This document shows positions 32,792-34,651 of a stretch of DNA of 64,000 nt, piece after piece (positions within the stretch are counted from its first letter, which is position 1; each line of letters starts with the position of its first letter). Below the pieces are notes generated by a model. The model searched no databases and had not been told where the DNA came from. It saw nothing but the letters and a program-made list of their open reading frames with translations. The stretch lies in the IMG/VR virus record IMGVR_UViG_3300021960_000046, positions 1-64,000 of that record; one strand, given 5' to 3'. The DNA comes from a virus. The position numbers were made by a program, and so were the translations under genes.

Positions 32792-32865
32792 TGGAGCGGA
32801 TGAGTGGTACTGCCCCACTTTCATTTGATTGGAAATCAAATATAATACTTTTATACGACATCCGC
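32792..32865 (-). tRNA. tRNA-Gly (anticodon TCC), aberrant T- and D-loops
   Basis: A 74-nt cloverleaf with encoded CCA. Acceptor GCGGATG/CATCCGC; anticodon arm TTTGA-TTTCCAA-TCAAA; T-stem AGTGG/CCACT. The T-loop is GGCAGTA rather than TTCRANY, and A18 replaces G18 in the D-loop (AAAAGT). All stems pair, so it is not simply decayed. Whether it is translationally active is uncertain. Confidence 0.75.
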
Positions 32866-33774: not shown

Positions 33775-34008
33775 TTAAAATGTCAACCCATAATGTATAA
33801 TTAATCCTACACCAAGAATTACTATCTGTGGTGTAAAATTGAGAAGAATACTCTTCTCTTGCCATTTGATACCCACATAGGTCCATAGAATAGCACCTAA
33901 CATGTGTACTATGACATTATAAGGGTATGCTTCTGGTATTGTGTGTAATGCTATCGCTATTAATATAGTCGAAGCAGCCACATACTTTATAATATTCACC
34001 ATTTTCAT
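33775..34008 (-). CDS. Small membrane protein, 77 aa
   Basis: The protein has three hydrophobic segments (residues about 8-24, 31-47 and 58-74) with few charges between, so it is an integral membrane protein. A GAGGAT site fits better with the second ATG (34000-34002, MVNIIKYV). No family is recognised with certainty. It is the gene directly downstream of the candidate structured RNA. Confidence 0.6.
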   Translation of the reverse strand: MKMVNIIKYVAASTILIAIALHTIPEAYPYNVIVHMLGAILWTYVGIKWQEKSILLNFTPQIVILGVGLIIHYGLTF

Positions 34009-34020
34009 ATCCTCATATAA

Positions 34021-34376
34021 GTGGTAGTTTCGGTTTAGGGTCTTAAACTACCAAAGAGAGCCGCAGCTTTAGTTTGGAGATTATAGAGGTGAAACTAAGC
34101 GCAAATGCTAAAACCCCTCTGTATCTGGTAGTGGTAGGCCTCACCCACTTTTACCCTAGTATCTACTTAAAGACACATTTCCCGAGGTCACGCTAGCGAC
34201 CTTTTACGGCTACGAAGGCCAATGGACCAGATAAGGTGGTAGTTTTGATAAAGCAGACTACCAACTGCTGACTATTCGGATTGAACCGAGGCGTCACCCC
34301 TTCCATCGCTGGAGGTCTTACGAATTGCCTCCACATACTATTTATTACACTTCACGGCACAGCAGATGGAACGAAA
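34021..34376 (-). ncRNA. Candidate structured RNA with two pseudoknots
   Basis: This 350-nt stretch has no ORF and a hand-counted G+C near 46%, far above its surroundings. Complementary segments on the minus strand are: 34360-34371 with 34301-34311 (11 bp, one bulge); an 8-bp long-range helix 34226-34233 with 34122-34129, extended by 34216-34220 with 34137-34141; and a closing 8-bp hairpin 34045-34052/34023-34030. One H-type pseudoknot uses 34265-34269/34252-34256 and 34257-34262/34238-34243. A second uses 34116-34120/34085-34089 and 34092-34100/34066-34075. It follows bS21. No tag reading frame, acceptor stem with CCA, RNase P or intron signature is seen. Confidence 0.55.
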
Positions 34377-34382
34377 TCTCTA

Positions 34383-34586
34383 TTATTTCATTCTTTCAAG
34401 TTTAGCTAATCGCTTTTTAGTATTTTTAATACCTTGCTTCTTAGCCTCTCTACGAATTTCTGAAGGTTTCATATAGTATTGTCTATCTCTAATTTCTTTG
34501 ATAAGACCCTCTTTCTGAACCTTTCTTTTAAGAACACGCATAGCCTGTTCTAAATTGCCATTTCTTACTTTTATTTCTATCGCCAA
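34383..34586 (-). CDS. rpsU: Ribosomal protein bS21
   Basis: The 67-aa product (MAIEIKVRNGNLEQAMRVLK...) aligns over its length with bS21: basic, with 'KRKVQKEGL', 'REAKKQGIKNTKKRLAKLER' and the SEIRREAKKQ block. bS21 sits near the anti-Shine-Dalgarno end of 16S rRNA and influences initiation; phage copies are known in marine viruses and may bias host ribosomes to phage mRNAs. The in-frame start is TTG (34584-34586), with AAAGG 13-17 nt upstream. A terminator lies directly upstream. Confidence 0.88.
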   Translation of the reverse strand: MAIEIKVRNGNLEQAMRVLKRKVQKEGLIKEIRDRQYYMKPSEIRREAKKQGIKNTKKRLAKLERMK

Positions 34587-34613: not shown

Positions 34614-34651
34614 TCAAAAAAGTGGTGGTAGGGACACTACCCCCTACCACC
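34614..34651 (-). terminator. Intrinsic terminator after the MoxR-like gene
   Basis: A 10-bp perfect stem (34624-34633 with 34642-34651, GGTGGTAGGG type) followed on the minus strand by ACTTTTTTG. A further 6-bp hairpin CTTCGC/GCGAAG sits at 34668-34684. Confidence 0.8.

What the first reader, a model, noticed from the sequence alone, without database searches (positions are those of the whole stretch)
34021..34376. G+C-rich 350-nt intergenic region with long-range helices and two H-type pseudoknots: candidate new structured RNA
Between bS21 and a membrane protein there is no ORF, yet G+C by hand count is about 46% (167 of 360), against about one third nearby. Perfect or near-perfect complementary segments form an 11-bp helix (34360-34371/34301-34311), an 8-bp helix across 97 nt (34226-34233/34122-34129) with a coaxial 5-bp extension, a closing hairpin (34045-34052/34023-34030) and two interleaved pseudoknots. 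On the minus strand the first has a 2-nt L1 and an A-rich 8-nt L3, as real H-type knots do. High G+C in an AT-rich phage genome is a classic sign of a functional RNA. It could be a trans-acting RNA or a 3' element controlling bS21.
Basis: partly seen in the sequence, partly recalled or inferred. Interest (0 to 1): 0.82.

Follow-up and report, generated by a model that had tools for sequence, protein, structure and literature searches.

The report
Pseudoknot-rich RNA beside phage S21 gene
Next to the ribosomal-protein S21 gene of ocean phages related to those that infect SAR11 bacteria lies a previously undescribed family of folded RNA, 110-350 bases long and full of pseudoknots; its shape is proven by matched mutations in more than 80 relatives, but what it does is still unknown.

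Summary
Window 34022-34371 (minus strand) encodes a conserved structured RNA between phage bS21 and a DUF6552 protein. It is the most G+C-rich 356-nt stretch of the window (46.3% against 34.1%), has no ORF, and matches no Rfam family. The same place downstream of bS21 carries this RNA in every pelagimyophage-like relative examined, including the isolates Mosig and HTVC008M. In 86 aligned sequences 96.7% of proposed pairs form, 27 of 30 pairs show two-sided changes, and at least 145 such changes are needed on an independent bS21 tree. G-U pairs outnumber A-C mismatches 129 to 23, which fixes the strand.

The RNA is modular. A 5' core with an H-type pseudoknot is found only in the bS21 operon. 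A cloverleaf-like module (window 34122-34233) also occurs alone, often just after stop codons of unrelated genes, in other phages, including the SAR11 siphophage Kolga. A T4-type late-promoter box lies inside the core.

Best reading: a late, 3'-UTR/operon RNA whose pseudoknots protect a stable 3' end and whose core binds a protein, possibly bS21 itself. That function is inferred, not shown.

The parts
34022..34371 (-). whole structured RNA (long form, about 350 nt)
   Evidence: homologous regions downstream of bS21 in more than 80 loci; covariation
34383..34586 (-). phage ribosomal protein bS21 (67 aa, TTG start), always upstream of the core RNA
   Evidence: PF01165 E=3.5e-16; PHROG 21469
34361..34371 (-). 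P1 5' strand (TTCCATcTGCT)
   Evidence: pairs with 34301-34310; all 9 P1 pairs show two-sided changes in A4
34301..34310 (-). P1 3' strand (AGCGATGGAA)
   Evidence: as above
34339..34346 (-). AATAAATA box between P1 5' strand and P2; matches the NATAAATA/TATAAATA late-promoter consensus of T4-like phages
   Evidence: ATAAATA: 15 sites against 36.8 expected, 14 on the coding strand and all of those but this one 17-182 nt before a gene; consensus from PMC2984593
34310..34333 (-). P2 hairpin TGGAGG-C-AATTCGTAA-G-A-CCTCCA; GGC...G-CC and loop nearly invariant
   Evidence: (pairs 63-112, 64-111, 65-109)
34269..34296 (-). P3 region (TGAC...GTCA enclosing TCGG/CCGA)
   Evidence: P3 covaries family-wide (helix 3); the window's own apical stem differs from the consensus, read by eye in the long forms
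34237..34269 (-). PK1, H-type pseudoknot (S1 AGCAG/CTGCT, S2 TGGTAGT/ACTACCA, A-rich L3)
34122..34233 (-). Module C: closing stem TATCTGGT/ACCAGATA, inner hairpins, hairpin AGTGG/CCACT whose loop AGGCC (34137-34141) pairs with GGCCT (34216-34220)
   Evidence: model R2: window 86.4 bits (but its copy L001 is in the seed)
34070..34119 (-). Module D: hairpin AGC-ATTTGC-GCT plus TAGTTT/AAACTA, probable pseudoknot with GAGG/CCTC
   Evidence: the crossing helix GAGG/CCTC is only 62% paired on that alignment
34022..34062 (-). PK2, H-type pseudoknot at the 3' end (S1 GGcTCT/AGACC, S2 TGGTAGTTT/AAACTACCA)
   Evidence: S2 100% paired; S1 exchanges read from the sequences
33775..34008 (-). next gene, 77-aa DUF6552 membrane-type protein (not constant among relatives; most have HSP20 here)
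   Evidence: PF20189 E=5.2e-8; gene order

Best explanation
Shown: 34022-34371 (minus strand) encodes a member of an undescribed, modular, multi-pseudoknot RNA family in the bS21 operon of T4-like SAR11-type phages. Inferred mechanism: the RNA is made late in infection, as the 3' part of the bS21 transcript and probably also from an internal T4-type late promoter. Its pseudoknots, which form its 3' end, stop 3'-to-5' exonucleases and leave a stable RNA end. The 5' core, with near-invariant P2 loop NRYYCRUAAG and invariant G-C pairs, is the docking site of a protein, most likely phage bS21 itself, so that free bS21 is titrated or feeds back on its own transcript. Probabilities: real structured RNA family 0.99; transcribed from the minus strand 0.97; stable late RNA in the 3' part of bS21 transcripts 0.55; direct binding by bS21 0.3.
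For: Structure. Family and genome place; the RNA stays in the bS21 operon even when one or two ORFs sit between (HTVC008M; L234). Late box. Phage bS21 is a late gene in other phages (PMC9723584). bS21 binds another large structured RNA, OLE, at a helix that mimics the SD/anti-SD duplex and depends on conserved G-C pairs (PMC12054373); P2 here is GGAGG/CCUCC in the window, and its GG/CC pairs are nearly invariant in the core. Module C sits 5-18 nt after stop codons of several unrelated genes, which suggests a 3'-UTR role.
Against: No transcript, 3' end, or protein binding has been seen. The exclusive bS21 link of the core comes from one syntenic locus in one phage clade, so common descent alone could explain it. 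P2 varies outside its GG/CC pairs, so the SD/anti-SD likeness is weak in many members. In 50 of 82 unique sequences the box is TATATATA rather than ATAAATA, so a late promoter there is not general. Control by ribosomal proteins normally uses 5' UTRs.
Confidence: 0.38

Rival explanations
1. It is purely a modular 3'-end element: folded domains that end, process and stabilise phage transcripts, with no special tie to bS21; the core is linked to bS21 only by common descent at one locus.
For: Module C follows stop codons of unrelated genes (gp47-like, SSB, an ORF before a primase) in other phages. The RNA begins close after the bS21 stop in most loci and ends in a pseudoknot before the next gene's promoter. 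No U-tract terminator was found after it.
Against: Near-invariant unpaired sequences and a repeated loop in HTVC008M look like specific binding sites; a plain stabiliser would not need such complexity.
Confidence: 0.3
2. It is a trans-acting noncoding RNA released from the operon that acts on the host, for example on the ribosome or an RNase.
For: Large, folded, with conserved loops; an internal late promoter in part of the family; module C is shared between a myophage clade and a siphophage of the same host group.
Against: No target was identified; the 3' modules vary freely between close relatives; no transcript has been seen.
Confidence: 0.2
3. It is a DNA-level element (origin, packaging or recombination site) whose inverted repeats only look like RNA.
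For: Non-coding, conserved, repeat-rich.
Against: G-U pairs 129 against A-C 23 on the named strand, which a DNA element would not show; H-type pseudoknots with A-rich third loops.
Confidence: 0.02
4. It is a 5'-leader regulator of the downstream gene (DUF6552 here).
For: In the window the RNA ends about 13 nt before that start codon.
Against: The downstream gene varies (DUF6552, HSP20, a 972-nt ORF in Mosig) while bS21 upstream is constant; HSP20 has its own ATAAATA box after the RNA.
Confidence: 0.08

Closest known systems
OLE RNA with bS21 (PMC12054373)
   Same: large structured RNA with a helix like SD/anti-SD and conserved G-C pairs; bS21 involved
   Different: about 600 nt, Bacillota; no Rfam match between them
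L17 downstream element (RF01708; PMC2864571)
   Same: structured RNA just downstream of a ribosomal-protein gene
   Different: Lactobacillales/Listeria, other protein; no covariance-model match
GOLLD / ROOL and other orphan structured RNAs of phages and bacteria
   Same: large folded RNA of unknown function
   Different: much larger; no Rfam match
tmRNA (RF00023 and variants)
   Same: about 350 nt with a chain of pseudoknots (long form)
   Different: no tRNA-like end found, no ARAGORN or Rfam hit
Plant-virus 3' UTRs (upstream pseudoknot domain plus tRNA-like structure; own knowledge)
   Same: chain of H-type pseudoknots and a cloverleaf-like domain in a 3' UTR: a working analogy only
   Different: no homology tested; different hosts

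Membership tests
any of the 4227 Rfam 15 families | score above the gathering threshold | tested here: not met
   window and 12 related loci, no hit but tRNAs; region at E<=10: only sub-threshold chance-level matches
tmRNA | tRNA-like domain and tag ORF recognised by model or ARAGORN | tested here: not met
OLE RNA | OLE covariance model match | tested here: not met
OLE RNA | binds bS21 | not testable with these tools
   needs a binding assay
bS21-operon RNA (this family, core model R1) | R1 match downstream of bS21, with P1, P2, P3, PK1 S2 paired | tested here: met
   window 34235-34374, 27.8 bits, E=0.0017, not in the model seed; 87 of 88 sources match, the exception being Melnitz L175
Module C family (model R2) | R2 match with closing stem, hairpins and loop pseudoknot | tested here: met
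   window 86.4 bits (its copy L001 is in the seed); sequences outside the seed and away from the bS21 locus 70-81 bits
T4-type late promoter | NATAAATA at a promoter-like place | tested here: inconclusive
   sequence and genome-wide placement fit, but most relatives have TATATATA and no start site is mapped
cis-regulatory 3'-UTR element | effect on the upstream gene | not testable with these tools
   needs genetics

The most novel reading that the evidence does not exclude
A new class of phage ribonucleoprotein: a modular multi-pseudoknot RNA that works together with phage-encoded bS21 to redirect the host ribosome late in infection, with an interchangeable cloverleaf-like domain that circulates among unrelated SAR11 phages.
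Probability: 0.15. Interest if true: 0.93.

Novelty: categorically new. Interest (0 to 1): 0.78.

Why it matters
Phage bS21 is thought to bias host ribosomes, and an RNA kept in its operon in every relative examined offers a concrete partner to test. [quoted passage not shown] module C in Kolga), so it can be probed now. It is a new RNA family by sequence and structure; it is not claimed to be a new biochemical principle.

Tried and rejected
Single-strand folding energy: not significant, set aside. Rfam at E<=10: chance-level matches only. Pattern scan of 84,980 prokaryote genomes: 14 hits, which look like chance matches in DNA of other bacteria and have no bS21 neighbour by the blast used. 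bS21 as a permanent neighbour of module C: rejected, since about 25 contigs carry module C with no bS21 found nearby. Anticodon-loop, T-loop and 16S 690-loop mimicry of the P2 loop: looked at by eye, not supported by the variation seen, not tested formally. RNAalifold on A1 found only two helices because of misalignment, so structures were drawn on tighter alignments. Papers: nothing describing this RNA was found in the library; most subscription papers are not covered.

Full report
What was checked. The window is part of an 86.7-kb virus record with T4-like genes around the finding: AAA ATPase, bS21, the region, DUF6552, HSP20, sliding clamp and clamp loader, all on the minus strand. The region has no ORF and is the most G+C-rich 356-nt stretch of the window. 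Rfam and ARAGORN find nothing in it. Its folding energy is ordinary.

Relatives. The cultured phage Mosig (Kyanoviridae; host HTCC1062) has the same gene order and a similar region. A search with bS21 gave 80 viral contigs; reading downstream of bS21 showed the hairpin GGCNRYYCRTAAGNCC in 62 of 63 distinct loci, and a variant in the last. An independent scan for the RNA (hairpin plus GGYGTCGC) gave 78 contigs: two look like chance hits in unrelated DNA (L087, L124), and the rest lie downstream of bS21 or too near a contig end to see it. A scan for module D gave 80 contigs, again at this locus or at contig ends; the one apparent exception, L234, starts inside bS21 (its tail was read by eye) and has two ORFs between bS21 and the RNA. 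HTVC008M carries a short, divergent copy behind a 111-aa ORF, with the loop motif twice. Melnitz, whose bS21 is distant, lacks it.

Structure. On 22 sequences the proposed P1, P2, P3 and both stems of the pseudoknot pair in 93.9% of cells, with 60 two-sided changes against at most 13 in slid controls. A covariance model from these finds the region in 87 of 88 sources, including the window (E=0.0017), which has no close relative in the seed. On the resulting 86 distinct sequences 96.7% of cells pair and 27 of 30 pairs have two-sided changes, 399 such cells against 94 in shuffles; this alignment was fitted to the model, so it leans towards it. On a tree built from bS21 DNA alone, at least 145 changes from one Watson-Crick pair to another are needed. 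G-U pairs far outnumber A-C (129 to 23), so the transcript is from the bS21 strand. PK1 scores far above shuffled sequence. Long forms add module C, module D and PK2. The crossing helix of module D is the weakest part (62% paired). The loop pairing of module C rests on one covarying pair of five, the others being invariant.

Module C elsewhere. A scan for module C gave 73 contigs. Most are at the bS21 locus, but about 25 have no bS21, HSP20 or clamp nearby. There it follows the stop codon of a gp47-like ORF, of an SSB, of an ORF before a primase, or of an unknown ORF; in some it lies in longer intergenic DNA. The siphophage Kolga and its partial relative Aegir (host SAR11, PMC8163748) carry it about 260 nt downstream of their own bS21 and right after gp47. 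A model built from the bS21-locus type, plus one copy after an SSB gene (L302), finds these others at E about 1e-17 to 1e-20. The bS21 proximity in Kolga may be chance.

Expression. ATAAATA is depleted in the window (15 sites against 37 expected); 14 sites are on the coding strand and 13 of them lie 17-182 nt before a gene; the remaining one is in this RNA. The same box is a described late promoter of T4-like cyanophages. In relatives 30 of 82 have ATAAATA and 50 have TATATATA, so promoter use is likely in the window but not general.

Mechanism. Three ideas remain close: 3'-end stabiliser, bS21-binding RNA, and trans-acting RNA. The best single account joins the first two. bS21 is known to bind a large noncoding RNA, OLE, and phage bS21 is expressed late elsewhere. 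The link of the core to bS21 could be simple common descent, so it is not proof of joint function. No experiment bears on this yet.

Verdict. A real and new RNA family, with strong evidence for structure and weak evidence for function.

Noticed in passing
L252-L307 (about 25 contigs), L308, L309: Module C, a cloverleaf-like RNA of about 85-115 nt with a loop pseudoknot, occurs alone, often just after stop codons, in phages without a bS21 gene nearby; it is an RNA family of its own, not in Rfam.
   Followed up: partly
window, 15 ATAAATA sites: ATAAATA is depleted overall but sits on the coding strand before genes: a predicted set of T4-type late promoters.
   Followed up: partly
window 34624-34651 (-): Terminator-like hairpin GGTGGTAGGGGGTAGTGTCCCTACCACC followed by ACTTTTTT, between the AAA ATPase and bS21.
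   Followed up: no
window 32795-32865 (-): tRNA called by Rfam (43.7 bits) but not by ARAGORN.
   Followed up: no
MT647606.1, L002 2801-3049: The annotated Mosig proteins Mosig_00014 and Mosig_00015 lie inside the RNA and are probably not genes.
   Followed up: partly
L174 3206-3541 and L234: A 111-aa ORF of no Pfam family sits between bS21 and the RNA in HTVC008M, with a look-alike in L234; it reads like a helix-turn-helix protein (by eye).
   Followed up: no
L174 3554-3610: HTVC008M has the P2 loop (CTCGTAAAT) twice in neighbouring hairpins, which suggests the loop is a binding site.
   Followed up: no
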